Positions 1,269-45,507 of a stretch of 49,198 bases of DNA are shown piece after piece. The stretch covers positions 94,013 through 143,210 of the forward strand of contig CALUQG010000004.1 of assembly GCA_944322855.1 (NCBI GenBank), read 5' to 3'. Within the stretch, counting starts at the first letter, position 1; each line of letters starts with the position of its first letter. The notes beneath the pieces are model-generated. The model saw nothing but the letters and a program-made list of their open reading frames with translations. It did not search any database and was not told the origin of the DNA. The stretch is from Candidatus Gastranaerophilales bacterium (GTDB lineage: Bacteria > Cyanobacteriota > Vampirovibrionia > Gastranaerophilales > Gastranaerophilaceae). The translations under genes were made by a program, and so were the position numbers.

Positions 1269-2618
1269 CTAAATATCGACAGGCGACATCATCTGAATAA
1301 GAGTATTAATAGTAGTATCCATACTAACGGAATCAGAAACTCTCTGTTGTAAGAAAGCGTTAATCTGCGGCATCATCTCAATAGCAATATCGAGTTTCGG
1401 GTTTGAACCTGCGACATACATACCTACGTCAATCAAATCTTTGTTTTCACGATACAGAGCCATTGCACGACGCATTTTTGCAGCTGCTTCTTTGTGTTCC
1501 GGCGAAGCTATTGCGGACATAAGACGGGAAATACTACCCAAAATATCTATTGCCGGATAATGATTCATCTCAGCAACTTTACGACTTAAGAAAATGTGCC
1601 CGTCAGTAATACCACGCACCGTATCAACAATCGGGTCATTGATGTCATCACCTTCCATTAATACTGTATACAAAGCTGTTATAGAACCTTTCGGACTGTT
1701 TCCGGCACGTTCAAGAACTTTCTGAAGCCACGAAAATATTGAAGGCGGATATCCTTTCATTGTTGGAGGTTCACCGATAGACAGGCCGACTTCACGCCCG
1801 GCCATTGCGCATCTTGTAACAGTATCTGTCATAAGGAAAACTTTTTTGCCTTTATCTCTAAAATATTCGCAAACAGAAGTTGCAGCCTGCAGGCATTTTT
1901 GACGTATCAAAGGCGGCTGGTCTCCGGTTGAACAAACAAGAACGGATTTTTTCATACCTTCTTCGCCCAGAGAATCTTCAATAAATTCTTTTACTTCCCT
2001 TCCACGTTCTCCAATCAGCGCCACAACGTTTACATCCGCATCAGAGTTTCTGGCAATCATACCCAGCATGGTGCTTTTCCCGACTCCGGATCCTGCAAAA
2101 AGACCCATACGTTGTCCGGCTCCCATTGTTAAAGTTGCATCAATAGCCCTGACTCCTGTTGAAAACATTGTATTGATAATAGGTCTGTCAAAAGGACTCG
2201 GTGCAGGGCCGTCAATTGATACAAAGTTTGCATCAGAAGTATCAAGCGGCTTTCCGTCAATTGGTTCTCCCATAGGACTGATTAATCTGCCCAGTAAAAA
2301 ATCGCCGACCGGAAGCATAATGGGCTTTCCTGTAGTGGAAACAAGACTGCCCTGTCCTATTCCTGCTCCGTCATAAAGCAAAAGCAGCTGCGCTGTATCA
2401 CCTTTGAAAGCGACAACTTCTGCAGGTTTTTTTTCTCCCTGCCATGTTTCTATAAAACATAAATCACCAATTTTCAATCCCGGAAGTTTTACTTCAACAG
2501 TAAGCCCCAGAAGCTTTGATACAGAACCCTTATACTGATACATGGGTGTTGAGTCTATTATTTCATAGGCCCTTTTTTTCATATATTCAATTGAACGTTC
2601 TGTTGATTGTTCAAGCAT
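1269..2618 (-). CDS. fliI: FliI/SctN-type type III export ATPase (first, divergent copy)
   Basis: This 449-residue ATPase of the F1-beta/FliI family energises export through a flagellar-type or injectisome-type type III apparatus at the inner membrane. It has an N-terminal beta-barrel region (residues ~30-100), a Walker [11 protein letters not shown] near 175-183, the [10 protein letters not shown] segment, and a Walker B-like region ending LMTDTVTR. It differs from the second copy at 36190: it reads [28 protein letters not shown], and it has [14 protein letters not shown], which recalls YscN-type ATPases. It is the last gene of a five-gene minus-strand series and starts 10 bp after flhA, with AGGGG ahead of the ATG. 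The class is clear. Whether it serves the flagellum or a second machine is open. Confidence 0.92.
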
Positions 2619-2628
2619 TTCTTAACCC

Positions 2629-4722
2629 CTATTGATAATCAGGCGAATACATTTCTCCAATTGTGTCTACAGCTTCGACTTTAATATCCGTAATCAATTC
2701 GGAATAGGATATTACAACAATTGTAGGAATATGTCTTTCCAAAAGCTGGTACAAAGGCAGTCTTATTCTTGGCGAACACAGGATAACCGGCTGCCTGCCT
2801 ACGGTCTGATGCGCACGCATAAGTGTGGAAGCTGTAGTTTCAATGAGTTCCTGAACCTGCATCGGATTTAGCAGGAACATTGTTCCTAATTCTGTTCTCT
2901 GACAGCTGTCATCAAGTGTTTTTTCCCATTCACTCGAAAGTGTCAGAGCATAAAGAACCTTATCCTCGGTGCAGTTTGTCAAACATATCTGTCTGCCAAG
3001 CGCAGCCCTGATACGCTCAGAGAGAATATCAGGTTCTTTTGAAAATCTTGCATAATCGCAGAGTCTCTCAAAAATAAAGATAATATCTTTGATGGAAACT
3101 TTTTCTCTTATCAGGTTAACAAAAATTTTGCGCAAATCGCTTGTTGAAATAATTGCAGGTACAAGGTCATTAACGAGTGTTGGGTCTTGAGATTTTACAA
3201 GTTCCATGAGCTTGAGAACATCGGTTTTTGTCATAACTTCATCAACATATTTTCTTACACATTCCTGAAGGTGTGTAACAATTACGTCTACAGAATCGAC
3301 TGCGGTCAGATGATCTTCTTCATGAATATTTGCAGGATCAACCCAGTATGCCTGCGCCTGATATGTAGGATCAATATTTACGATAGAATCTGCAGGAGTA
3401 GGTCTGCCTGTAGCATCCCACTGATCAGCAATAACCATGAGTTTTCCGGGATAAACAAATCCGGTTGCAACTTTGTTGCCTCTAATGGATATCAAATATT
3501 CGTTTGCATCCAGAGCGGAAGAATCCATAATTCTTATGTTAGGTATAATGTATCCGAGTTCATCAGTAACACGCTGACGCAATGCAGCTATTTTTGCCAG
3601 CAGCTGTCCTTCCTGATCAGGGTCAGCAATAGGCAAAAGTCCGGAGCCTACCTGCAGACTCAAGACATCTACACCCAGTCTCTCGTACATCTTATTCGGG
3701 TTAACAAGATCCTGCATATTTTGTTTAACATTTTCTAATTGGCCGAGTTGAGCCTGAACATCCTGATTAACAAGAACAGAAAAACCTGCAATCAAAAGAA
3801 TTACTGAAAAAATAGTAAACGGAAGCCATGGCAATCCTGTCCAATGGCTTGATACGGCAATCAACATAAGGAAACCTACAGCGCAGAACAAACTCATAGG
3901 TTTGCTCATAATCTGTCCGGCAACATCAGTTGCCAAACTCGGACTTGCTGCAGAAGCACGTGTCATTACGATACCTGCAGATACTGCCATCAAAAGCGAC
4001 GGAACCTGTGAAGACAAACCGTCACCGATTGTCAAAATTGTATATTTTGAAACGGCATCACCTATAGGCATTCCCTGCTGTAAAACACCGATTAACAAAC
4101 CGCCTATGATATTGATGATTACAATGATAATACCGGCCATCGTATCACCTTTTACGAACTTCATAGCACCATCCATAGACCCGAACAGAGCGGATTCTCT
4201 TTGAAGATCCTCACGTCTTTTGACTGCTTCATCAGGTGAAATCAATCCGGCATTGAAATCCGCATCAATCGTCATTTGCTTACCAGGCATTGCGTCCAAT
4301 GCAAACCTTGCGGAAACTTCGGCAATACGTTCCGCACCTTTGGTAATTACCATAAACTGAACAATAGTGATAATTATAAAAATTACACCGCCGACAACCA
4401 TGTTACCTCCGGTGACAAATGTCCCGAAAGCGTGAATAACTTCGCCGGCTTCACCTTTTGCAAGAATAAGACGGGTTGAAGCAATCCCCAGAACCAGCCT
4501 GAACATTGTACCGATAAGGATAATTGACGGAAATGAAGAAAGTTCAAGCGGTTTTTGAATATACAAAGAAAACATCAAAAGAACGATACCCAGTGTAATA
4601 TTCAAAGATATTGAAAAGTTAATAATCCATGTCGGAACTTCTATAAGCAGGATGAGTATCAGCGCCACTACAAATGCCGCCAGTGAAAGTTCGCTTATTG
4701 GATTTCCGTTTGGATTTGCCAT
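2629..4722 (-). CDS. flhA: FlhA/SctV type III export gate protein
   Basis: This 697-residue protein has the length of FlhA. The first ~330 residues carry about eight hydrophobic segments; the rest is the cytoplasmic domain that receives export substrates. The family signature lies near residues 130-165 (GAERIAEVSARF, then DAMPGKQMTID). NPNKMYERLGVDVLSLQVG marks the start of the cytosolic part. It forms the nonameric export ring together with FlhB, whose gene is at 44410. The start codon overlaps the stop of the upstream fliH-like gene by one base (TAATG), which points to translational coupling. It is the only FlhA in the window, and it sits in the divergent cluster rather than in the canonical fliFGHI operon. 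Confidence 0.96.
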   Translation of the reverse strand: MANPNGNPISELSLAAFVVALILILLIEVPTWIINFSISLNITLGIVLLMFSLYIQKPLELSSFPSIILIGTMFRLVLGIASTRLILAKGEAGEVIHAFGTFVTGGNMVVGGVIFIIITIVQFMVITKGAERIAEVSARFALDAMPGKQMTIDADFNAGLISPDEAVKRREDLQRESALFGSMDGAMKFVKGDTMAGIIIVIINIIGGLLIGVLQQGMPIGDAVSKYTILTIGDGLSSQVPSLLMAVSAGIVMTRASAASPSLATDVAGQIMSKPMSLFCAVGFLMLIAVSSHWTGLPWLPFTIFSVILLIAGFSVLVNQDVQAQLGQLENVKQNMQDLVNPNKMYERLGVDVLSLQVGSGLLPIADPDQEGQLLAKIAALRQRVTDELGYIIPNIRIMDSSALDANEYLISIRGNKVATGFVYPGKLMVIADQWDATGRPTPADSIVNIDPTYQAQAYWVDPANIHEEDHLTAVDSVDVIVTHLQECVRKYVDEVMTKTDVLKLMELVKSQDPTLVNDLVPAIISTSDLRKIFVNLIREKVSIKDIIFIFERLCDYARFSKEPDILSERIRAALGRQICLTNCTEDKVLYALTLSSEWEKTLDDSCQRTELGTMFLLNPMQVQELIETTASTLMRAHQTVGRQPVILCSPRIRLPLYQLLERHIPTIVVISYSELITDIKVEAVDTIGEMYSPDYQ

Positions 4723-5510
4723 TATATTTGTTTAAATGCCTCTTTTATTAACTCGAGCTGTGTACTTATATTAGCATCTATAATACCGTTTGAAGTTTCA
4801 ATAACCGCTGACCCTTCATCCACATCTTTGTCGCCCGTTACAAAGATTTTAGCTTCAAATTGTCCGGAAGACAAAAGCGCCGGAACAATTTCTTTTGTGT
4901 ATTCGACATCTGTCGGATTTACTTTGAGTATAATTTTGTTCTCGTCTTTTGCAAGGCTCTTCAATGCATCATGTACGATTGCATCAAGAACTTTTTTGTC
5001 TGTTTCTACTTCTTTTTTAATGATTTTTTCAGCAACTTTCAAGGAAATATCTAGAATATCTCCTGCCACTTTATCGTAGACGACTTCTTTATATCCAAAA
5101 AATTCTTCAAGAGCACTTTTTAAGGCGAACAAATCTTCTTTTGCTTCCTCTACACCTTTTTCATAGCCTTCTTTGGAAGCTTGTTCCTTAATCATTATAG
5201 CTTCCTGCTGTGCACGGGAAATAAGGTTTCTGTCATCTATTCTTCTATAGCCCCTTCTTCTGTCGCCTCTTCTTCTCTCGGCTCTCTGGGAGAAATTTAT
5301 GTCATCAAAATTAAAACCTTCAAAAATATCGAATGTTTTTTCTTCTTCTTTTTCAGGCTGAGACTGTTGTTGAATATTTTCTTCGTGCAAGGAAGATGAA
5401 TCTTGTAACTGTTCCTCAATCTGTTCCTGCGATATTTGTTCAACAGGTTGCTGAGGAAGGTGAGGCTGAATTCTATTGAGTTTTTTCTGACTATTTCTTT
5501 TTATTATCAT
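4722..5510 (-). CDS. fliH: FliH-like export ATPase regulator (first copy)
   Basis: The protein has 262 residues. Residues ~1-70 are low-complexity and rich in Gln and Glu; a very basic patch follows (RRRGDRRRGYRR near 80-90). Next comes a coiled coil starting near AQQEAIMIKEQA, and a FliH/SctL-type C-terminal domain (from about DILDISLKVAEKIIKKEV). FliH proteins bind the FliI N-terminus and act as a peripheral-stalk analogue of F-type ATPases. The position directly upstream of flhA and fliI supports the call more than raw sequence does. AGGA stands 8 nt before the ATG. The basic patch is not usual in FliH and could contact RNA, lipid or an acidic partner; that is inference. Confidence 0.8.
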   Translation of the reverse strand: MIIKRNSQKKLNRIQPHLPQQPVEQISQEQIEEQLQDSSSLHEENIQQQSQPEKEEEKTFDIFEGFNFDDINFSQRAERRRGDRRRGYRRIDDRNLISRAQQEAIMIKEQASKEGYEKGVEEAKEDLFALKSALEEFFGYKEVVYDKVAGDILDISLKVAEKIIKKEVETDKKVLDAIVHDALKSLAKDENKIILKVNPTDVEYTKEIVPALLSSGQFEAKIFVTGDKDVDEGSAVIETSNGIIDANISTQLELIKEAFKQI

Positions 5511-5542: not shown

Positions 5543-6550
5543 TTATTTGCGAGAAAGTTTCTCTTCAATGTGATTGCATATAATATCCGCAATTCTTGGC
5601 GGAATATCTACACTTCTGCCTTGTCCTGCGGCCGCTGATACAAAGTTTTTTACGAGTTCTCTTTCCTTCATTATCATATTAGATATTTTAGAAATATCCG
5701 AATTTTTTACAATTTTATATAATCTGTCATAAATTTTTCCTGCATTAAGTTTTTTAGGCTCAGGCAATGTTTTTTTTATCTCTTTCAAACATTTTACAAC
5801 AAGTCCTCTGTCGAGTTTGTTTTCAAGATCCTCCATAGCCGCATAATCATTTAAAATAGCAGCATCGTCAGGCGAAAACTTGCTCAATAGGCCCTGTCGC
5901 TTGTCTGCTGGCAGGTGTCTTAGAACTATTGCAAAAGTTGCGAGTTTAAAAAGTTTGTTGTCGTCTGTATGCTGAATATACTCGGTAAGCTCATCCTGGG
6001 CACCTTGCTGTTGAGGAGATTGCGCAGCTTGCTGCTGTTCTATTTGTTCCTGTGCCTGCTGCTGTGCCATTTCATCAATATTGGAGTGGCTCAATGCTTC
6101 TTTGACTTGCTCTTCGTTCAAAATGCCTTTTGCTTTTAGTTCGTCGAGAGCTTCAGCATAAGCTTTTTTGACATGATGTTCGACAACGGCAATCATATCA
6201 GCCTGCGGAAGCTGTTTTATTATTGCTGTTTTGGCTATTTCAAATACGGTAAAGGCTATTTTTTGCATTATACCGTCTCTAAACTGTGGATCAATTCCGC
6301 TTCTTATGATATCAATAGCCTTGTGAAAAGCCCATTCCCCGATAAACTGTGTAACGATGCTTGCCTGCTCCGCATTAAAACTTATAGTTGTATCATTTGC
6401 AATAGCTTCCCCAGCCATGTAACAGAAGTTGAATACAATGTTGATAATATACTGCTTGTCTGCATCAGCCAGATCAGGCGGCAGTGCCGGCCCAACCTGA
6501 TCGGAAAGGTTTTTTGCAAATTCTTTATAATCAAATCCTTCTATTGGCAA
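5543..6550 (-). CDS. Unrecognised protein in the FliG position (possible divergent C-ring component)
   Basis: The 335-residue product lies between fliF-like and fliH-like genes, exactly where fliG sits in the second operon. Residues 1-160 are a helical domain of no family I recognise. Residues ~163-187 are a Gln-rich linker. Residues ~190-335 are helical again. The stretch TFAIVLRHLPADKRQGLLSKF resembles the FliG middle-domain pattern of a hydrophobic helix followed by LP..., but the charged C-terminal torque helix found in real FliG is not visible. The start is TTG at 6550, chosen because GGGAGAG stands 6 nt upstream. A FliG-like role rests on synteny plus this weak resemblance. A non-rotating scaffold is as likely. 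Confidence 0.6.
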   Translation of the reverse strand: MPIEGFDYKEFAKNLSDQVGPALPPDLADADKQYIINIVFNFCYMAGEAIANDTTISFNAEQASIVTQFIGEWAFHKAIDIIRSGIDPQFRDGIMQKIAFTVFEIAKTAIIKQLPQADMIAVVEHHVKKAYAEALDELKAKGILNEEQVKEALSHSNIDEMAQQQAQEQIEQQQAAQSPQQQGAQDELTEYIQHTDDNKLFKLATFAIVLRHLPADKRQGLLSKFSPDDAAILNDYAAMEDLENKLDRGLVVKCLKEIKKTLPEPKKLNAGKIYDRLYKIVKNSDISKISNMIMKERELVKNFVSAAAGQGRSVDIPPRIADIICNHIEEKLSRK

Positions 6551-6626
6551 TTTTGTCTCTCCCTGTTAGTTTGAATTTTTAGCTAAAATTCTGCTTTCAA
6601 ATAAATCTTGTAGATTTAACTATGGA

Positions 6627-8255
6627 TTATGCTTTTTCAATCCAGCTTTTGACGTGTTCTGCAAGAGCATCATCATCAAGCCCTGACATTTCATCCGCAA
6701 GCTCAGACAGTGTCGAATTTAATTCAGGCAATGTTTGTGATTGATTTTTTTGTTCGAGCATTCCTTGTGCAAGCTGTGTTTGTTTTTCTATCAATTCGGC
6801 AGCTTTCAGATTTACATCTCTTATTTGTTTTTCTTGATCTTGAGATTTTTCTCTCAACATTTCTATTTCTGCTCTTTGTCTGTCCTGAGCAGCTTTAACT
6901 CTGTCAGACAGGAATTTCAAACCTACACCAAGACCGATAAGTATCAGTGCAATTGCAAGCCACCACGGGTTTCCCGTTGAATCCGGTTTCGGAAGTGATT
7001 CAGGTTTGTCACCTGCAAGGAACGGATCAACCGAGTCAGAGAATGCAATTTCTACATTTTCTGCTTTTGCTTTTGGGGATGCAGCTCTTGCTATAAGCTC
7101 TTTTAATTCTTCTAAAGTCATATTGGCAGGAATAGAGCTTTCTTCAAGTGTAACTGCAATAGATATATCTTCAACTGTTCCCGGTTTTACAAGTTCACTG
7201 GTCTGTACTTTCGGAACTCCGTATTGAGTTTCTCTTGCTGTTCTTGAGTAGCTTCTGTTTTGAGCGGAATCAGCATTATTTGCAGGTAATCCGTTAGGCA
7301 GATACACGCTCACGGCACTGATGCCTTTGTTTGTGTCTCTGGTTTGATCACCCAAACCTTCTGAAAAAGTTTGTTCTGTCAAAGCAGTCTTTTTAGTCGG
7401 ATCAAAATCAATTGCATCTTTCTGCATTGGTGCCTGACGCAAATATGTACTGACCGTAACGGCATAATTGCCTTTCCCGATAAGTTTATCCAGCTGGGTT
7501 TTTACCTTTGCCTGCATATACTGGTCATTTTCTTCAAGTTTGGCCAGCATGTCATCATCAGCTGATGCTATAGAATCATAAACATTTCCGTTTGTATCGG
7601 TAATCGAGATATTTTCAGCTTCAAGACCATTAACAGAGCCTAACAAAAGATTTCTAATGGCCTTGACTTTCATATTATCCAGTTTTTCACCGCTTGGCAT
7701 AACAAGCTGAACTGTTGCTGTAATAGGCTTTTGATCCTGTTCAAACATAACCTGTTCAGGAATTGATACAAAAACAGATGCGTTTTCTATCGGAGGGATT
7801 TTTCTTATTAAACGAGACAACTCCCCGTTGATTGCACGGGTGAGACGAATTCTTTTATCTTCTTTTGTTGATGTAAAATCACCTTTGTCAAAGATTTCAA
7901 GACCGATATTCTGGTCTACAAGACCGCTTTTTACAATAGCCAGAAGAGCCCTATCTCTTTGTGTCATAGTGTATTTTTGCAGATATAAAACAGATTTTTG
8001 TCCGTCAGCACGTCTTTCGACAGTAATACCTTCTCTGGCAAGAAGTGCCTGGATTTCAATAGCTTTGCCCAGATTATCTGTTGTAAGCAAGTCAAGCGGT
8101 TTGTCTATGACTTTTTCTTTAACTGTTTTTGGCGCACCGGAATTGTTTTGAGACACGACGACTCCCACTGTTATAAACAGTGCAAGCACTACAACAAGTC
8201 CTCCTATTATCCCATATAGTAATGGCTTATTTTCCAGTATTTTTTGAAAATCCAT
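6627..8255 (-). CDS. fliF: FliF-like MS-ring protein (first, divergent copy)
   Basis: The protein has 542 residues. A transmembrane helix lies at ~14-36 and a YscJ/FliF ring-building domain at ~50-220, including ASVFVSIPEQ and the ITDTNGNVYDS segment that corresponds to FLTDQSGN in standard FliF. A long periplasmic middle follows. A second transmembrane helix (PWWLAIALILIGLGVGL) lies at ~428-448, then a coiled coil, and the C-terminal tail ends AEHVKSWIEKA. That final amphipathic helix with a Trp is the kind that binds FliG in ordinary flagella, so a partner is expected and may be the next gene. The two-helix architecture is flagellar FliF rather than the injectisome ring protein SctJ. AGGAAA precedes the ATG, and a strong sigma-70-like promoter lies upstream. 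Confidence 0.88.
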   Translation of the reverse strand: MDFQKILENKPLLYGIIGGLVVVLALFITVGVVVSQNNSGAPKTVKEKVIDKPLDLLTTDNLGKAIEIQALLAREGITVERRADGQKSVLYLQKYTMTQRDRALLAIVKSGLVDQNIGLEIFDKGDFTSTKEDKRIRLTRAINGELSRLIRKIPPIENASVFVSIPEQVMFEQDQKPITATVQLVMPSGEKLDNMKVKAIRNLLLGSVNGLEAENISITDTNGNVYDSIASADDDMLAKLEENDQYMQAKVKTQLDKLIGKGNYAVTVSTYLRQAPMQKDAIDFDPTKKTALTEQTFSEGLGDQTRDTNKGISAVSVYLPNGLPANNADSAQNRSYSRTARETQYGVPKVQTSELVKPGTVEDISIAVTLEESSIPANMTLEELKELIARAASPKAKAENVEIAFSDSVDPFLAGDKPESLPKPDSTGNPWWLAIALILIGLGVGLKFLSDRVKAAQDRQRAEIEMLREKSQDQEKQIRDVNLKAAELIEKQTQLAQGMLEQKNQSQTLPELNSTLSELADEMSGLDDDALAEHVKSWIEKA

Positions 8256-32810: not shown

Positions 32811-34394
32811 TTGGAAACAAATTATTTTAAACTGTTCATTGATGATTTAACAAAACTGTGGAACGGTTTAGAAGTCGGACAAAAATTGGGTATAATAGTT
32901 CTCGGAGCCATAACATTAATGGTTTCGGCATTTTTTATTGTTAAATCTATGGAGCCTAATTGGTCTGTTTTGTATTCTGATTTATCCCAGCAGGATGCTG
33001 CTGCAGTGTCTGAAAGTTTGAAAAAAAGCGGATATCCTTTTAAGCTCAGTGCTGATAAAAAATCCGTGCTTGTGCCTCAGGAGATGCAAGATGAGTTGAG
33101 AATATATGTAGCAGAAAACGACCTTATACAAGATTCTTCTCCGGGATTTGAGCTTTTGGATGACATGCAGCTCGGGTCTACGGATTTTAAAAACAAACTC
33201 ACAAAACAAAGAATTTATCAAGGAGAACTTACACGCTCAATTGAAAAAATGAGCGGAATAAGAAAAGCTCGTGTTCAAATAGCAGATCCTGAACGTTCTG
33301 TTTTTTCAGAAAAGGATGAAGCTCCTACAGCTTCTGTTATGCTAATTTTAGAACCAGGATACAAGCTCAAAACTTCTCAAATCAAAGCAATAAAAAATCT
33401 TGTTGCCTATGCTATACCGAGATTGACTCCGGAAAGAGTATTTTTGACAGACCAGTCAGGGAACAATCTTTCTGATGATATAGAAAAAAATTCAAATGAT
33501 ATTGAATCATACAAAATAAACTATGAAAATCAAACTGCAAAAAAAATTCAAGATGTATTGGACAAGATTGTAGGATCTGACAATGCATCTGTTCAGGTTA
33601 GTGCTGATATAGATTTTAATTCAACACGTTCAACAATAGAAAGCTATATACCTGTCGGTGAATCTCAGCAGGGCGTGTTGACTTCAACCCAAACAGAAAC
33701 TGAAAATTATGAAAATCCTAATCCAAATACGGCAGGAATTACTACCGGTTCAAACAATCCTCCTGCTCAGCCTGCACCGGGTGGTCAGCCAAGAAATTTG
33801 AATTATCAAAAACAAAAAACAGCAAGTACATATAGCGTTTCAAAAGAGATTAAGCAAATTATATATGCTCCGGGTACTGTTAAAAGGATGACTATTGCTG
33901 TTGCTGTTAACAAAATTTTGACTACACAGGAAAAAGAAGAGCTTGAAAAACTTGTTATTTCTGCAAGCGGAGCAGATCTCAACAGAGGTGATATTATAAA
34001 TATCACAAGTCTTGAGTTTTCGGCAAAAGATCAGAATATTGCAGCTGCAACACAAGAAGCAAAAGCTATTCAGAAAGAAAAAACACAAGAAATTGTTGTT
34101 AACAAACTTGTACCGATGTTTGTGATACTGGTGCTCGGACTTGTTGCGTTGTTTGTCTTCCGTTCACTGTTTGGAAAAACAACTGCTGCCGCAGATGGCT
34201 GGGATGAACAGTATCAAGAACAGCAGCAGGCAATTACTGATAACTTGATAGACAAGTTTGAAGTTGAATCGCTTCCTCAGATTGAAGCAAAACTCAATCC
34301 TGAGCTGGATAAACTAAAATCAGACCTAACAGACACAATTATGTCTGACCCGTCGGAAGCAGCAAAAATACTTATTTCATATATTAAGGACTAA
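32811..34394 (+). CDS. fliF: Flagellar MS-ring protein FliF (second, canonical copy)
   Basis: The protein has 527 residues. A membrane helix lies at ~26-46 (GIIVLGAITLMVSAFFIV). The YscJ/FliF domain has GFELLDDMQLGSTDFKNK, RSIEKMSGIRKARVQIA, and PERVFLTDQSGN. A Pro/Asn-rich region near 300-330 precedes a second helix near 440-462 (VPMFVILVLGLVALFVF). The tail ends AKILISYIKD, the FliG-binding helix. All these are standard FliF features. The start is TTG at 32811, with AAAGGGG just ahead. fliG follows 8 bp later. Confidence 0.96.
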   Translation: METNYFKLFIDDLTKLWNGLEVGQKLGIIVLGAITLMVSAFFIVKSMEPNWSVLYSDLSQQDAAAVSESLKKSGYPFKLSADKKSVLVPQEMQDELRIYVAENDLIQDSSPGFELLDDMQLGSTDFKNKLTKQRIYQGELTRSIEKMSGIRKARVQIADPERSVFSEKDEAPTASVMLILEPGYKLKTSQIKAIKNLVAYAIPRLTPERVFLTDQSGNNLSDDIEKNSNDIESYKINYENQTAKKIQDVLDKIVGSDNASVQVSADIDFNSTRSTIESYIPVGESQQGVLTSTQTETENYENPNPNTAGITTGSNNPPAQPAPGGQPRNLNYQKQKTASTYSVSKEIKQIIYAPGTVKRMTIAVAVNKILTTQEKEELEKLVISASGADLNRGDIINITSLEFSAKDQNIAAATQEAKAIQKEKTQEIVVNKLVPMFVILVLGLVALFVFRSLFGKTTAAADGWDEQYQEQQQAITDNLIDKFEVESLPQIEAKLNPELDKLKSDLTDTIMSDPSEAAKILISYIKD

Positions 34395-34402
34395 ACTGAA
34401 AA

Positions 34403-35425
34403 ATGGTGGAAATAGCCTACGAAACAATGACTCAGAGACAGAAAGTTGCAGCGCTTTTAATTGCGTTAGGGCCTTCTACAGCTTCTGAAATCTTAAAAAA
34501 TATAAAAGATGATGATATTCTTGAACAAATAACCTTTGATATTGCCAGTTTAAATAAAGTTCCGACAGAGATAATGAATCAGGTATTGGAAGAATTTCAC
34601 TCTCTGTTTCTTGCAAGTGATTATCTGGCTTCAGGCGGTACTAATTATGCAAGAACATTGCTTGAAAAAGCATATGGCGCTGAACAGGCACAAAATATGC
34701 TGGGCCGACTTGTTAATTTGCTTACTACAAACCCGTTTCAATTTTTTAATGATGCGGATCCTTCTCAGCTTGCAACTTCTTTTCAAAATGAAAATCCACA
34801 GCTGATTGCGCTTATTCTTGCATATTTAAAACCTGAAAGTTCTGCCAAAGTTCTCAACAGTTTGCCTCCTGAAGTACAAGCTCAGGTTGCATTCAAAATT
34901 GCGGATATGAATTCTACAAACCCTGAAATTATTTCTGAAATAGAAAAAATTGTGGAAAGTAAATTCTCATCAGTTGTTGCTCAAGACTTTTCAAAAGCAG
35001 GCGGTGTAGGGGCGCTTGCTAATATTTTGAACCGTTCCGACCGTGCGACCGAAAAGAATGTTCTTGAATATCTTGAAATGAAAAATCTTGAACTTGCAGA
35101 AGGTGTTCGTGAACTTATGTTTGTATTTGAAGACATTATTCAGCTCAAAGATAACGCTATTCAGCGTATTATCAGGGAAGTTGAGACACGGGATCTTGCA
35201 ATTTCACTCAAAGGTGTCAGAGAAGAAATCAAAGAGAAAATTTATAGCAACATGTCAGAGCGTGCCCAGACAATGCTCAAAGAAGAACTTGAATACATGG
35301 GGCCTGTCAGAGCAAAAGAAGTTCAGGAAAAACAGACAAAAATTGTTGGTATTATCCGTGCACTTGAATCTGCAGGTGAAATTGTAATCACCAGAGACAC
35401 AGCCGAGGATGAATACATTGAGTAA
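34403..35425 (+). CDS. fliG: Flagellar motor switch protein FliG
   Basis: At 340 residues the length is that of FliG. It has the N-terminal FliF-binding domain (QRQKVAALLIALGPSTASEI), the middle domain with LIALILAYLKPESSAKVLNSLP, which carries the family's LxxLP pattern, and the C-terminal torque domain starting VRELMFVFEDIIQLKDNAIQ. The latter has the charged helix RIIREVETRDLAISLKG that meets the stator. Its last 17 bp overlap fliH. Confidence 0.96.
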   Translation: MVEIAYETMTQRQKVAALLIALGPSTASEILKNIKDDDILEQITFDIASLNKVPTEIMNQVLEEFHSLFLASDYLASGGTNYARTLLEKAYGAEQAQNMLGRLVNLLTTNPFQFFNDADPSQLATSFQNENPQLIALILAYLKPESSAKVLNSLPPEVQAQVAFKIADMNSTNPEIISEIEKIVESKFSSVVAQDFSKAGGVGALANILNRSDRATEKNVLEYLEMKNLELAEGVRELMFVFEDIIQLKDNAIQRIIREVETRDLAISLKGVREEIKEKIYSNMSERAQTMLKEELEYMGPVRAKEVQEKQTKIVGIIRALESAGEIVITRDTAEDEYIE

Positions 35426-36197
35426 AATTGATGCCAGCAAAATAAATCTCGGAAATTCATTTGTTATAAACAGTGACGGAAAAGGACTGGTTAACAAAGA
35501 AATTACCGATGCACAGCTCATTGCAGACACTATCATTGCTGAAGCAAAGAAAAAAGCACAGATTATTTTGCAAGAAGCAGGGCAAAAAGCTGACAAAATA
35601 CTTATACAGGCTGAAGAACAGGCTGAAGCCAGCAAGGACGAAGTTCTTGCAGATTCAAAAAAACAGGGTTATGAAGAAGGATACGAGGAAGGTAAGGAAA
35701 AAATCACTACCGAGATGGAAGATCTTGTTTATAATCTGAATAATTTTGCAAAGTCAAAATTTGAAATGAAAAACCGCATAATAAAATCTGTTCACAATGA
35801 TATTATTGATTTAATTCTTGCGATATCCGAAGAGATTTGTAAAACACAGATAACTTATAACAGACAGGCTCTTATCAACCTTGTTTCAAATGCAATTGCA
35901 CAGTTAAAAGAAAAAGAGAATGTTACCATTATTGTAAATCCTGAAATGGCAAGAAAAATTTATGAAATATCAGATGATTTGAAAGATAAAATACACAATC
36001 TTGAACATATAAAAATAGTTGAAGATACAGCTGTTTCTCCTGACGGAACAATTGTAGAATCTGTCGGTTCAAGAGTTGATGCAAGAGTTAAAGCTCAAAT
36101 TGAACAATTTGCACAGCATCTTTATAATGAATTAAACTCTACTCCTGAGTCTGAACTCGTAAGAGAAATAGAGCAAGACGAAAATAACAATGATTAA
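35409..36197 (+). CDS. fliH: FliH-like export ATPase regulator (second copy)
   Basis: The 262-residue protein has a long coiled coil (~35-100, AKKKAQIILQEAGQKADKIL) and a C-terminal FliH domain (from LILAISEEICKTQITYNR). It should bind FliI from the gene next to it. It overlaps fliG by 17 bp at the start and fliI by 8 bp at the end, so the four genes are tightly coupled. It lacks the basic patch of the first fliH-like copy. Confidence 0.87.
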   Translation: MNTLSKIDASKINLGNSFVINSDGKGLVNKEITDAQLIADTIIAEAKKKAQIILQEAGQKADKILIQAEEQAEASKDEVLADSKKQGYEEGYEEGKEKITTEMEDLVYNLNNFAKSKFEMKNRIIKSVHNDIIDLILAISEEICKTQITYNRQALINLVSNAIAQLKEKENVTIIVNPEMARKIYEISDDLKDKIHNLEHIKIVEDTAVSPDGTIVESVGSRVDARVKAQIEQFAQHLYNELNSTPESELVREIEQDENNND

Positions 36198-37509
36198 TCT
36201 TGAAAGATACAAAAATGTAATAAAAAAAACAAATTCGATGCAGGAAGTCGGGAAAGTTATTCAGATTATCGGATTGATAATAGAAGCTGACGGCCCGAAA
36301 TCAAGTATCGGTGATCTTTGTTATATATACAACAGCTTTGACAAAGAGCCGATATGGGCAGAGGTAGTCGGTTTTAAAACATCAAAAATTCTTTTGATGC
36401 CGCTTGGTTCTATGGAAGGGCTTATGCCCGGGGCTGTTGTTATGAATACCGGTTCTTCAATGAAAATCAAAGTTGGTCCGCAGCTTTTAGGAAGAGTTCT
36501 GGACGGTTTAGGCCGTCCGATAGACAATCTGGGGGTTATAAATACGCAGTCTTTGTATTCTACTCAGGCAGAGATTATCAATCCTTTGAACAGACAGTTG
36601 ATAAGAACACCGCTGTCTCTCGGTATACGATCTATTGACGGTTTTATTACTGCAGGTAAAGGACAGAGACTGGGTGTGTTTGCCGGATCAGGTGTCGGAA
36701 AATCCACTACACTGGCTATGATGGCTAAAAATACAAATGCTGATTTAAACGTAATAGCATTGATTGGTGAACGAGGCCGTGAGGTCAGAGAGTTTATTGA
36801 AACAACATTGGGCCCTGAAGGAATGAAACGTTCAATAGTTGTTGTTGCCACATCAGAGCAGCCTTCGCTTGTAAAAATTAAAGCAGGATTTGTTGCAACA
36901 GCGATTGCGGAATATTTTAGAGACCAGGGCAGAGACGTATTGTTTATGCTTGATAGTGTAACCCGTATAGCGATGGCTCAAAGAGAAGTCGGGCTTGCTG
37001 TCGGTGAACCTCCGGCAACAAGAGGTTATACCCCTTCGGTTTTTGCTTTGATGCCAAAGCTTTTGGAACGTGCAGGAAGTAACGAATACGGTACGATTAC
37101 AGGTTTATATACGGTTCTTGTTGAAGGTGATGATTTTAATGAGCCGATATCTGATACAGCGAGAAGTATTCTCGATGGTCATATTATGCTTTCCAGAGAG
37201 CTTGCTCACAAAAATCATTATCCAGCAGTTGACGTGCTGCAAAGTGTCAGCCGTGTTATGAAAGAGGTTACTGATTCTGAACATGCTGTGTCAGCAGGGA
37301 AAATAAGAACCCTTCTTGCCGCATACAAAAAGAACGAAGATTTGATAAACATTGGTGCGTATGTTTCAGGCGCTGACCCTGTTACTGATCAGGCTATCAA
37401 GTTTATGCCTCAGATTAATGAATTTTTACAGCAAAAAGTTGATGAAAAAACAACTTATGAGGAGACCGTCGCTGCTTTAATTAACCTTGGAAGGCAGATA
37501 AACTTATAA
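36190..37509 (+). CDS. fliI: Flagellum-specific ATPase FliI (second, canonical copy)
   Basis: The 439-residue ATPase has Walker [16 protein letters not shown] near residue 163-173, the GERGREVREFIE segment, LDSVTRIAMAQREVGLAVGEPPATRGY and YTVLVEGDDFNEPI. These follow the standard FliI consensus closely. It completes the fliFGHI operon. The sequence differs from the copy at 1269 throughout the catalytic core, so the two are old paralogues rather than a recent duplication. Confidence 0.96.
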   Translation: MINLERYKNVIKKTNSMQEVGKVIQIIGLIIEADGPKSSIGDLCYIYNSFDKEPIWAEVVGFKTSKILLMPLGSMEGLMPGAVVMNTGSSMKIKVGPQLLGRVLDGLGRPIDNLGVINTQSLYSTQAEIINPLNRQLIRTPLSLGIRSIDGFITAGKGQRLGVFAGSGVGKSTTLAMMAKNTNADLNVIALIGERGREVREFIETTLGPEGMKRSIVVVATSEQPSLVKIKAGFVATAIAEYFRDQGRDVLFMLDSVTRIAMAQREVGLAVGEPPATRGYTPSVFALMPKLLERAGSNEYGTITGLYTVLVEGDDFNEPISDTARSILDGHIMLSRELAHKNHYPAVDVLQSVSRVMKEVTDSEHAVSAGKIRTLLAAYKKNEDLINIGAYVSGADPVTDQAIKFMPQINEFLQQKVDEKTTYEETVAALINLGRQINL

Positions 37510-43741: not shown

Positions 43742-44413
43742 CTAATAGCCGTAATGTTCGTGTTGTATAAGATATTCTCTGACATGATTCAGTGCACCTT
43801 GAACAATACGTGTAATACGTGAGGAAGAAAGACCTACCTGCTCGGCAATTTCTTTAACCTGCATATTTCTGTAAAATCTGTATTCAACAACAAGTCTGTC
43901 TTTTTGAGGTAAAGTTGCAATAGCTTCTCTTATTGCTCTTCCGAGTTCAGAAATTTCTGCTTTTTCATCTGGCAATGCATGTGGGTCTTTGATAAAATCA
44001 AACGGAGAATCATTATCTGATGATGCCGCAGCGATAGAATCAATAGATAAAATTGTCTCATAAATAGCTTCTCTGACTTTGCCAGGAGATACTTCAAGTC
44101 CGTCTTCGCCGCTGTCTTCCGCTTCTTCGTCAGATTTATTATGCTTGAGAGTATACCATTTATAACGATTTCTCAATTCGTTTCTGATAGCCCATCTGAC
44201 AGCTGTACCAATATATGAGCTGTTATATTTTTCAAGCTGTTCATCTGTTTTGTTTTTTATCATTGATTGAACAGCAATGATACCTATAGAAACAAGCTCA
44301 TCATAATCCACCATATGAGCAGGAATACGACGGTGCTCTATTTTGGCTACTTTTTCTACAATTGATATATATTCTTTAATTTTATTTTGAGAAGCGTTAT
44401 TAACCATGGTCAT
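43742..44413 (-). CDS. Sigma-70 family factor, FliA-like
   Basis: The 223-residue factor has region 2 (VDYDELVSIGIIAVQSM, YIGTAVRWAIRNELRNRY), an acidic linker (SDEEAEDSGEDG), and region 4 (LPQKDRLVVEYRFYRNMQ, AEQVGLSSSRITRIVQ). This pattern fits the FliA/SigF/WhiG group, which lacks region 1.1. Its start overlaps the flhB stop by 4 bp (ATGA), so it is translated with the flagellar export gate gene. That makes a flagellar or stage-specific sigma likely. Confidence 0.88.
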   Translation of the reverse strand: MTMVNNASQNKIKEYISIVEKVAKIEHRRIPAHMVDYDELVSIGIIAVQSMIKNKTDEQLEKYNSSYIGTAVRWAIRNELRNRYKWYTLKHNKSDEEAEDSGEDGLEVSPGKVREAIYETILSIDSIAAASSDNDSPFDFIKDPHALPDEKAEISELGRAIREAIATLPQKDRLVVEYRFYRNMQVKEIAEQVGLSSSRITRIVQGALNHVREYLIQHEHYGY

Positions 44414-45507
44414 GTCTTATCTGTTTTCTTAGTATCTATATTACTAGGTTTTTGTGTTTTGCGCAAATTATATACAAACAATAAAATTTCCGCTACAGCT
44501 TTGTATAAATCAGGAGGAATTTCTCTGTTTAATTCAACCATCCTGAATATCGCCCTTGCAACAGGCGGATTTTCAATTACAGGAACTCCGTGTTCACGTG
44601 CAATATCAATAATCTTTTTGGCAAAAAGCTCAGTACCTTTTGCTATCAGCTTTGGTGATTCCATTTCTTCCTGATCATACTTTAAAGCGCAGGCAATATG
44701 AGTTGGGTTGGTAACAACAAAATCCGCATCCGGCACCGCATCCATCATACCCTGCTGCATCATTTGCTGGCGGCGCTGACGCAGTGCTGCTTTTACATTA
44801 GGATCACCTTCTGTATTTTTATATTCATCTTTTACTTCTTTAAAAGACATTTTTTGATCCTGCAAAAACTTCCATCTGGTCATTCCGTAATCTGCTGCAG
44901 ATATAATCAAAAAAGCAATACTGGCTTTAATAACAAAGTCCATTATCAATGCACCGAACTCCTGCATAATTGCAAAGTTGTTATCCATTGCGGCCAAGCC
45001 GAGAATTGTTTCAAAATGAGCGCTGTATACAGACCATCCGACCCAGCCCAAGACTATTACTTTCAAAATATTTTTTACAAGTTCAAAAAGTGTTTTGACT
45101 GACATCAAATTTTTAAAGTATTTGGTAGGATTGAGTTTATCCAGCTTTGGTGCAAGCGGTGTCGTTGTGAACAGCGGCCCGACCTGTATAAAATCACCTA
45201 TTATTGCAATAAACATTGCAAGAAACAAAATAGGCCCTATAATCAAAACCGTAGGTACAAGTGTTATAAAAAGCAGATACGGCAAACCGATATTTTCCAG
45301 ATGCTGATTTGGAATTTGCTCATAACACAGCACAAATAATCTCGAAATCTGGTCAAATATAAAAGGCGCAAGTTTTGCAATTGCAAAAAACATAACAATC
45401 ATTGCAAGAGCGGTCGAAAAGTCTTTTGACTTTACAACCTGTCCTTCTTTTCTTGCTTTTTCCAGTTTTTGGTGTGAGGCCTCAAACTGCTTATCTTCAT
45501 CACCCAT
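44410..45507 (-). CDS. flhB: FlhB type III export switch protein
   Basis: The 365-residue protein has about four membrane helices (~30-50, 78-105, 145-165, 187-205) and a cytoplasmic domain with the autocleavage motif NPTH at residues 267-270. PVIENPPVARAIF and LYKAVAEILLFVYNL complete the family pattern. FlhB sets the order of export substrates. AGGA precedes the ATG. It lies between mlaD and the sigma factor gene, away from the fliF operons, and no fliR or fliQ is beside it. Confidence 0.96.
   Translation of the reverse strand: MGDEDKQFEASHQKLEKARKEGQVVKSKDFSTALAMIVMFFAIAKLAPFIFDQISRLFVLCYEQIPNQHLENIGLPYLLFITLVPTVLIIGPILFLAMFIAIIGDFIQVGPLFTTTPLAPKLDKLNPTKYFKNLMSVKTLFELVKNILKVIVLGWVGWSVYSAHFETILGLAAMDNNFAIMQEFGALIMDFVIKASIAFLIISAADYGMTRWKFLQDQKMSFKEVKDEYKNTEGDPNVKAALRQRRQQMMQQGMMDAVPDADFVVTNPTHIACALKYDQEEMESPKLIAKGTELFAKKIIDIAREHGVPVIENPPVARAIFRMVELNREIPPDLYKAVAEILLFVYNLRKTQKPSNIDTKKTDKT

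What the first reader, a model, noticed from the sequence alone, without database searches (positions are those of the whole stretch)
5543..6550. Unrecognised 335-residue protein takes the place of FliG
It sits between fliF-like and fliH-like genes, as FliG does in the other operon, but I see no FliG torque domain. A Gln-rich linker joins two helical domains. One segment faintly resembles the FliG middle domain. If it binds the FliF tail, it would be a novel ring adaptor in a system that may not rotate.
Basis: partly seen in the sequence, partly recalled or inferred. Interest (0 to 1): 0.62.

Follow-up and report, generated by a model that had tools for sequence, protein, structure and literature searches.

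The report
Torque-less FliG-like adaptor, second flagellar-type exporter
In gut relatives of cyanobacteria, a second flagellum-like export machine that seems to have no rotary motor carries, where the torque protein FliG normally sits, a FliG relative cut down to its membrane-ring-binding part and fused to a new domain, so FliG's anchoring role appears to have outlived its motor role.

Summary
The gene is real: minus strand 6550-5543, 335 aa, TTG start. It lies between a FliF-type and a FliH-type gene in an operon also encoding FlhA and FliI, in Candidatus Gastranaerophilales, and is conserved across the order. It has a helical N-domain (1-165) of unknown fold, a Gln-rich disordered linker, and a helical C-domain (196-335).

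The C-domain is not unrecognisable. It is a divergent FliG/MgtE_N-type ARM domain (PDB profile search: top three hits FliG, 9 of 21 overall). Two other families of the class encode it alone, as a 123-134 aa protein between FliF and FliH. An AlphaFold model of one such protein joined to its own FliF tail resembles FliG above all else in the PDB, the tail supplying the first helices, as in the known FliF-FliG 'split domain'. No torque domain is present.

In 33 genomes FliG_C, flagellin and MotB co-occur in the same 21. The other 12 lack all three yet keep this operon, so the second machine is unlikely to rotate.

Verdict: position and missing torque domain confirmed; FliF-tail binding supported in silico on a homologue. 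It is a truncated, refitted FliG-type adaptor, not a new adaptor type. The N-domain's role is unknown.

The parts
5543..6550 (-). the finding: 335-aa protein X in FliG's place between fliF2 and fliH2
6557..6564 (-). Shine-Dalgarno-like AGGGAGAG upstream of the TTG start
   Evidence: sequence; inference
6056..6550 (-). X N-domain (residues 1-165), helical domain, fold relatives not established; paralogous copies are fused to FlhA C-domain, TPR or membrane segments in other genomes
5966..6055 (-). Gln-rich linker (residues 166-195), low pLDDT at 177-195
5546..5965 (-). X C-domain (residues 196-335): divergent FliG-type ARM domain, homologous over its length to the stand-alone 123-134 aa proteins of sister families
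6627..8255 (-). fliF2: MS-ring protein of the second system
6630..6740 (-). C-terminal tail of FliF2 with invariant Trp (..AEHVKSWIEKA), proposed docking partner of the X C-domain
   Evidence: modelled on a homologue
4722..5510 (-). fliH2
2629..4722 (-). flhA2 (scores higher as FlhA than as SctV)
1269..2618 (-). fliI2
44410..45507 (-). flhB, the one of two in the genome that is not beside the C7 FliP; probably that of the second system
   Evidence: assignment inferred
32811..37509 (+). flagellar operon fliF-fliG-fliH-fliI used as comparison; canonical FliG at 34403-35425

Best explanation
X is a FliG-derived (or FliG-superfamily) MS-ring adaptor of a second, flagellum-type type III export machine that has no rotary motor. 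Its C-terminal ARM domain co-folds with the Trp-containing C-terminal tail of the FliF encoded next to it, as FliG_N does with flagellar FliF. This places one X per FliF subunit under the MS ring. The torque domain (FliG_C) and the usual FliM-binding ARM_M repeat are missing. In Gastranaerophilales an added N-terminal helical domain on a flexible Gln-rich linker hangs from the ring and probably recruits another cytoplasmic part, such as the SpoA (SctQ-like) C-ring protein, FliH-FliI, or the FlhA cytoplasmic domain. Shown: gene, position, conservation, superfamily membership of the C-domain, its stand-alone homologues at the same operon position, absence of a torque domain, and retention in genomes without FliG_C, flagellin and MotB. 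Predicted in silico on a homologue: tail docking. Inferred: ring stoichiometry, lack of rotation, N-domain recruitment role.
For: (1) Profile of the C-domain against 177,635 PDB sequences: top three hits are FliG (E 0.0014, 0.0061, 0.0067), 9 of 21 hits are FliG and one is MgtE; a hypergeometric estimate of so many FliG by chance is about 1e-32. The N-domain profile gives no FliG hit. (2) Pfam scan of 34 C-domain sequences against 24,736 families: the most frequent matches are MgtE_N (15 members), FliG_M (10, best 1.1e-4) and FliG_N (10, best 2.2e-4). (3) Shuffle control: 16/34 (FliG_M) and 12/34 (FliG_N) members exceed the 99% shuffle level, against 0/19 and 1/19 for the N-domain. (4) In families f9 and f47 of the class the gene between fliF2 and fliH2 encodes only this domain; profile comparison with X's C-domain gives probability 97.3%, E 2.5e-11 over 119 columns. 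(5) X lies directly 3' of FliF2 in over 100 loci, and the FliF2 tail ends in a conserved helix with an invariant Trp. (6) AlphaFold of FliF tail plus short protein: pLDDT 86.8, pTM 0.67, tail blocks 78-91. Fold comparison: the top 14 rows are all FliG (best Z 8.3, 100 residues, 3.8 A), the next unrelated row is Z 2.4, and model residues 5-130, tail included, overlie FliG 91-191, i.e. ARM_M. That FliG_N co-folded with the FliF tail matches the FliG_M fold is published (PMC7355467). (7) FliG_C, Flagellin_N and MotB_plug occur in the same 21 of 33 genomes; the 12 without them keep X or the short protein. (8) The second system has its own FliP/Q/R/O and two-SpoA protein.
Against: The docking was modelled for a homologue in another family, in one artificial read-through chain that forces proximity, with no coordinates or PAE to inspect. 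Foldseek E-values are individually insignificant (1.2 and above) and Z 8.3 is modest for a helical protein. The FliF2 tail is not significantly similar to flagellar FliF tails by profile. Profile-profile comparison of C-domain and FliG gives only a short match (E 6e-4, probability 28%). In the model of X alone the C-domain matches FliG with a high rmsd of about 14-15 A. Most sequence matches favour FliG_M or MgtE_N as much as FliG_N. One 99%-complete genome of the family (G218) shows no X.
Confidence: 0.7

Rival explanations
1. X is an SctK-type (YscK/MxiK/OrgA) adaptor that joins the ring to the SpoA protein, and its similarity to FliG is only a shared helical-repeat look.
For: Same position in the logic of the machine (ring to SpoA protein); the second system has a separate two-SpoA SctQ-like protein; no torque domain.
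Against: The unbiased sequence profile points to FliG and MgtE_N and not to any injectisome adaptor; the machine's other parts score as flagellar rather than injectisome and include FliF_C, FliE, FlgB, FlgC and FlgG relatives. SctK itself was not compared directly.
Confidence: 0.1
2. The N-domain, not the C-domain, is the main working part: X is an export-gate regulator that touches FlhA, and the FliG-like domain only tethers it.
For: Paralogous N-domains are fused to the FlhA cytoplasmic domain in several genomes; the N-domain is the better conserved half in Gastranaerophilales (mean column identity 59% against 45%).
Against: Families f9 and f47 do without the N-domain at the same operon position, so the FliG-like domain is the common core. 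The two views are compatible.
Confidence: 0.15
3. X is a decaying FliG remnant in a degenerate flagellum, without function.
For: Earlier reports describe partial flagellar gene sets and loss of flagella in this order (PMC4451040, PMC5877343, PMC3787301).
Against: X is intact, full-length and conserved over a whole order, has acquired rather than only lost a domain, and sits in an operon kept in genomes with and without a flagellum. A complete second export set is kept beside the flagellum in the window's own genome.
Confidence: 0.04
4. X replaces FliG in a still rotating flagellum, with torque taken up by another protein.
For: The second operon carries rod-type genes (FlgB, FlgC, FlgG relatives, FliE) in many genomes.
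Against: Twelve genomes with the operon have no flagellin and no MotB plug domain above cut-off; the genomes that have flagellin also have a canonical FliG_C.
Confidence: 0.03

Closest known systems
FliG, N-terminal ARM domain co-folded with the FliF C-tail (PDB 5TDY, 5WUJ; reviewed in PMC7355467)
   Same: Gene order between fliF and fliH; divergent ARM domain; modelled docking of the FliF tail as the first helices of an ARM domain
   Different: One ARM domain instead of N, M and C; no torque domain; no EHPQ FliM-binding motif seen; extra N-terminal domain and Gln-rich linker
FliG middle domain and MgtE_N
   Same: Best Pfam and PDB sequence matches fall on these related ARM domains
   Different: No CBS or channel domains of MgtE; no second FliG ARM repeat
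SctK/YscK/MxiK/OrgA sorting-platform adaptors of injectisomes
   Same: Would fill the same role between membrane ring and SpoA protein
   Different: No sequence match found; not compared directly
Myxococcales secretin-less T3SS, proposed intermediate between flagellum and injectisome (PMC3459982)
   Same: Flagellum-derived export machine lacking elements essential for motility
   Different: Here FliF keeps its flagellar C-terminal part and tail, and a reduced FliG-type protein is retained; phylum differs; gene sets not compared in detail
Published 'flagella' of Melainabacteria (PMC3787301)
   Same: ACD20 gene list runs flgG, flgG, flgC, fliF (G0021), fliH (G0023), flhA, fliI; the unlisted gene G0022 sits where X would be
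   Different: The paper does not mention FliG or a second system; that its genes belong to this second system is my inference

Membership tests
FliG (canonical flagellar motor switch protein) | FliG-type ARM domain | tested here: met
   C-domain: top PDB hits FliG, Pfam FliG_M/FliG_N/MgtE_N enrichment, shuffle control, fold rows all FliG for the homologue. Individual scores are below Pfam cut-offs.
FliG (canonical flagellar motor switch protein) | Second ARM repeat (FliG_M) with EHPQR-type FliM-binding motif | tested here: not met
   Only one ARM-type domain is recognised; no EHPQ-like motif in alignment A3, against NENPQ in the window's own FliG
FliG (canonical flagellar motor switch protein) | FliG_C torque domain | tested here: not met
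   No FliG_C match to X; in the operon-bearing, flagellin-free genomes no FliG_C above cut-off anywhere
FliG (canonical flagellar motor switch protein) | Gene between fliF and fliH | tested here: met
FliG (canonical flagellar motor switch protein) | Binds the FliF C-terminal tail | tested here: inconclusive
   Predicted for a homologue in a read-through single-chain model; not tested for the window's own pair; tail motif not significant by profile
SctK-type adaptor | Sequence or fold match to SctK/OrgA/MxiK | tested here: inconclusive
   No such hit among sequence or fold rows, but no direct comparison was made
Rotary flagellum (for the second system) | FliG_C, MotB and flagellin, needed for rotation and filament | tested here: not met
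   Absent together in 12 of 33 genomes, all of which keep the operon (with 35 and 46)
Flagellar-type T3SS, as opposed to injectisome (for the second system) | FlhA, FliI and FliF closer to flagellar than to Sct models | tested here: met
   NCBIfam bits: FlhA 699 vs SctV 592; FliI 558 vs SctN 535; FliF 110 vs SctJ 59, all below the equivalog cut-offs of the flagellar models

The most novel reading that the evidence does not exclude
A class of non-photosynthetic Cyanobacteriota carries, in several families, a flagellum-derived, motorless type III export machine in which FliG has been reduced to its MS-ring-binding ARM domain and, in Gastranaerophilales, refitted with a new cargo- or gate-recruiting N-domain that also circulates fused to FlhA cytoplasmic domains. 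It would be a living intermediate between flagellum and injectisome that evolved independently of the known ones.
Probability: 0.5. Interest if true: 0.78.

Novelty: new variant of a known kind. Interest (0 to 1): 0.62.

Why it matters
FliG is thought of as the torque protein. Here a FliG-type protein survives without torque domain, stators or filament, which separates its role as ring scaffold for export from its role in rotation. It makes testable how an export machine sheds its motor on the way from flagellum to injectisome. It also suggests that some 'partial flagella' reported for gut Melainabacteria are a different, non-motile machine. Because the organisms live in animal guts, what this machine exports would be of wider interest.

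Tried and rejected
Direct searches with the single protein: nothing in PDB, nothing above cut-off in Pfam or NCBIfam. Full-length profile against PDB: only chance hits. Fold search of the whole X model: the list is filled by helical bundles matching the N-domain (best 6tgz, Z 10.2, 132 residues, 3.4 A), below the level that means anything for helical proteins. hhalign of the N-domain against FliG and against the short proteins: nothing, so the idea that X is two FliG-like ARM domains is dropped. A profile of local flagellar FliF tails does not score FliF2 tails above shuffles convincingly, and FliF2 tails find no FliF in PDB, so the tail likeness is a motif impression only. No FliF-X gene fusion was found in the loci held. 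Sub-threshold FliG_N hits to 830-850 aa ORFs look like Clp-type AAA ATPases from their sequence and were dismissed.

Full report
What is there. It is the second gene of a five-gene block read leftwards: FliF-type (6627-8255), X (this gene), FliH-type (4722-5510), FlhA (2629-4722), FliI (1269-2618). The window's other operon, 32811-37509, encodes FliF, a FliG with all three Pfam domains, FliH and FliI. The window belongs to Candidatus Gastranaerophilales, non-photosynthetic relatives of cyanobacteria (record titles of the relatives).

Is it a gene? Yes. Relatives occur in 56 of 59 nearby genomes, in 135 of 292 genomes sampled across the phylum, nearly all in the same family, and in 395 loci of the named genome collection. 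Identity of orthologues runs from 82% to about 30% over the full length, with conserved residues throughout. In over 100 loci X lies directly 3' of the same FliF-type gene.

Two systems in one genome. The window's genome has two full-length FlhA, two FliP and two FlhB, FliM and FliN on one contig, and a separate protein with two SpoA domains followed by FliO, FliP, FliQ and FliR on another. X belongs to the second set. By NCBIfam scores this set is flagellar rather than injectisome in type: FlhA 699 bits against SctV 592, FliF 110 against SctJ 59. In many relatives the operon also carries FlgB-, FlgC-, FliE- and FlgG-like genes, and in family f9 a lytic transglycosylase.

Domain structure. AlphaFold with 23 orthologues gives a helical N-domain (pLDDT mostly above 90), a disordered linker at 177-195, and a helical C-domain (pLDDT about 84). 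The N-domain has no convincing relative in PDB by sequence or fold. It recurs in other proteins of these genomes: fused to the C-terminal cytoplasmic part of FlhA, to a TPR-like protein, to membrane segments, or alone beside X.

What the C-domain is. A profile of 34 C-domain sequences, searched against all PDB sequences, ranks three FliG chains first (E 0.0014-0.0067). Nine of its 21 hits are FliG and one is MgtE, whose N-domain is a known distant relative of FliG (relation stated in PMC7355467). A hypergeometric estimate for nine FliG among 21 hits is about 1e-32. The N-domain profile, as a control, finds none. Scanning the 34 sequences singly against Pfam, the commonest of 24,736 families are MgtE_N, FliG_M and FliG_N, with best E-values between 1e-4 and 6e-4. 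Shuffled sequences do not reproduce this. No single score passes a curated cut-off, and hhalign against a FliG alignment finds only a short stretch, so the kinship is distant.

The short homologues. In two other families of the class (f9 and f47 in the tool's numbering) the gene between fliF2 and fliH2 encodes a protein of only 123-134 aa that is X's C-domain and nothing else. The profile match between X's C-domain and these proteins is strong: probability 97.3%, E 2.5e-11, 119 columns. The FliG-like domain is therefore the common core, and the N-domain was probably added in Gastranaerophilales (inference).

Does it bind FliF? All aligned FliF2 tails end in a helix with an invariant Trp. It is an artificial fusion that brings the partners together. 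The model has pLDDT 86.8 and pTM 0.67, and the tail blocks score 78-91. In the comparison with PDB every one of the 14 best rows is FliG, best Z 8.3 over 100 residues at 3.8 A, and the next unrelated row is Z 2.4. Foldseek also puts eight FliG chains first, though with insignificant E-values. The aligned range includes the FliF tail: model 5-130 overlies FliG 91-191, that is helix NM and ARM_M. The literature says that FliG_N co-folded with the FliF tail takes the FliG_M fold (PMC7355467), so this is what canonical binding would look like. I could not inspect coordinates or run a two-chain prediction. Sequence likeness of the tails to flagellar FliF tails is not significant.

Does the machine rotate? 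Among 33 genomes, FliG_C, Flagellin_N and MotB_plug are each present above cut-off in the same 21 and absent in the same 12, seven Gastranaerophilales and five f9 genomes. All 12 keep X or the short protein. Conversely, three flagellated genomes of families f46 and f50 show no match to the short protein, and no member of f46 or f50 is among the hits listed for X. The second system is thus independent of the flagellum and has no recognisable torque protein, stator plug or filament. That it does not rotate is inferred, not observed.

Relation to earlier work. Di Rienzi and colleagues (PMC3787301) listed flagellar genes of ACD20 as flgG, flgG, flgC, fliF (gene 21), fliH (gene 23), flhA, fliI. [quoted passage not shown] Soo and colleagues (PMC4451040) inferred a flagellum loss in the order. 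My reading is that part of these 'flagella' is the second system described here; I did not examine those genomes. Searches of the held library found no description of X or of a second system; papers outside that library were not searched.

Verdict. It is best described as a FliG-superfamily adaptor reduced to one ARM domain and fused to a new domain. It works like the FliG_N anchor but is not a FliG, since two defining features, the torque domain and the FliM-binding repeat, were tested and not met.

Noticed in passing
L031:779-2881, L032:2222-4306, L033:893-2977, L042:1042-2823: The N-domain of X occurs fused, through membrane segments, to the cytoplasmic C-terminal part of FlhA in proteins of about 600-700 aa that are not in T3SS operons. 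An FlhA gate domain without the gate is unusual.
   Followed up: partly
L059:7299-8756 (G000 contig C24): The window's own genome encodes a 485-aa protein with only the FlhA C-terminal domain (FHIPEP 309-653) and no export-gate membrane part.
   Followed up: no
L039:3843-4406 and 2872-3831: In genome G041 a stand-alone copy of the X N-domain (187 aa) is encoded between fliF2 and X.
   Followed up: partly
G000 contigs C3, C6, C27, C33: Four flagellin-like ORFs of 630-699 aa with identical scores in the window's genome suggest near-identical copies of a long flagellin.
   Followed up: no
L040:2734-5244: An 836-aa protein joins the X N-domain to a long TPR-like repeat region.
   Followed up: no
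L185:9514-10050 and homologues in f9 loci: A lytic transglycosylase (SLT) gene sits between flgC-like and fliE-like genes of the second system.
   Followed up: partly
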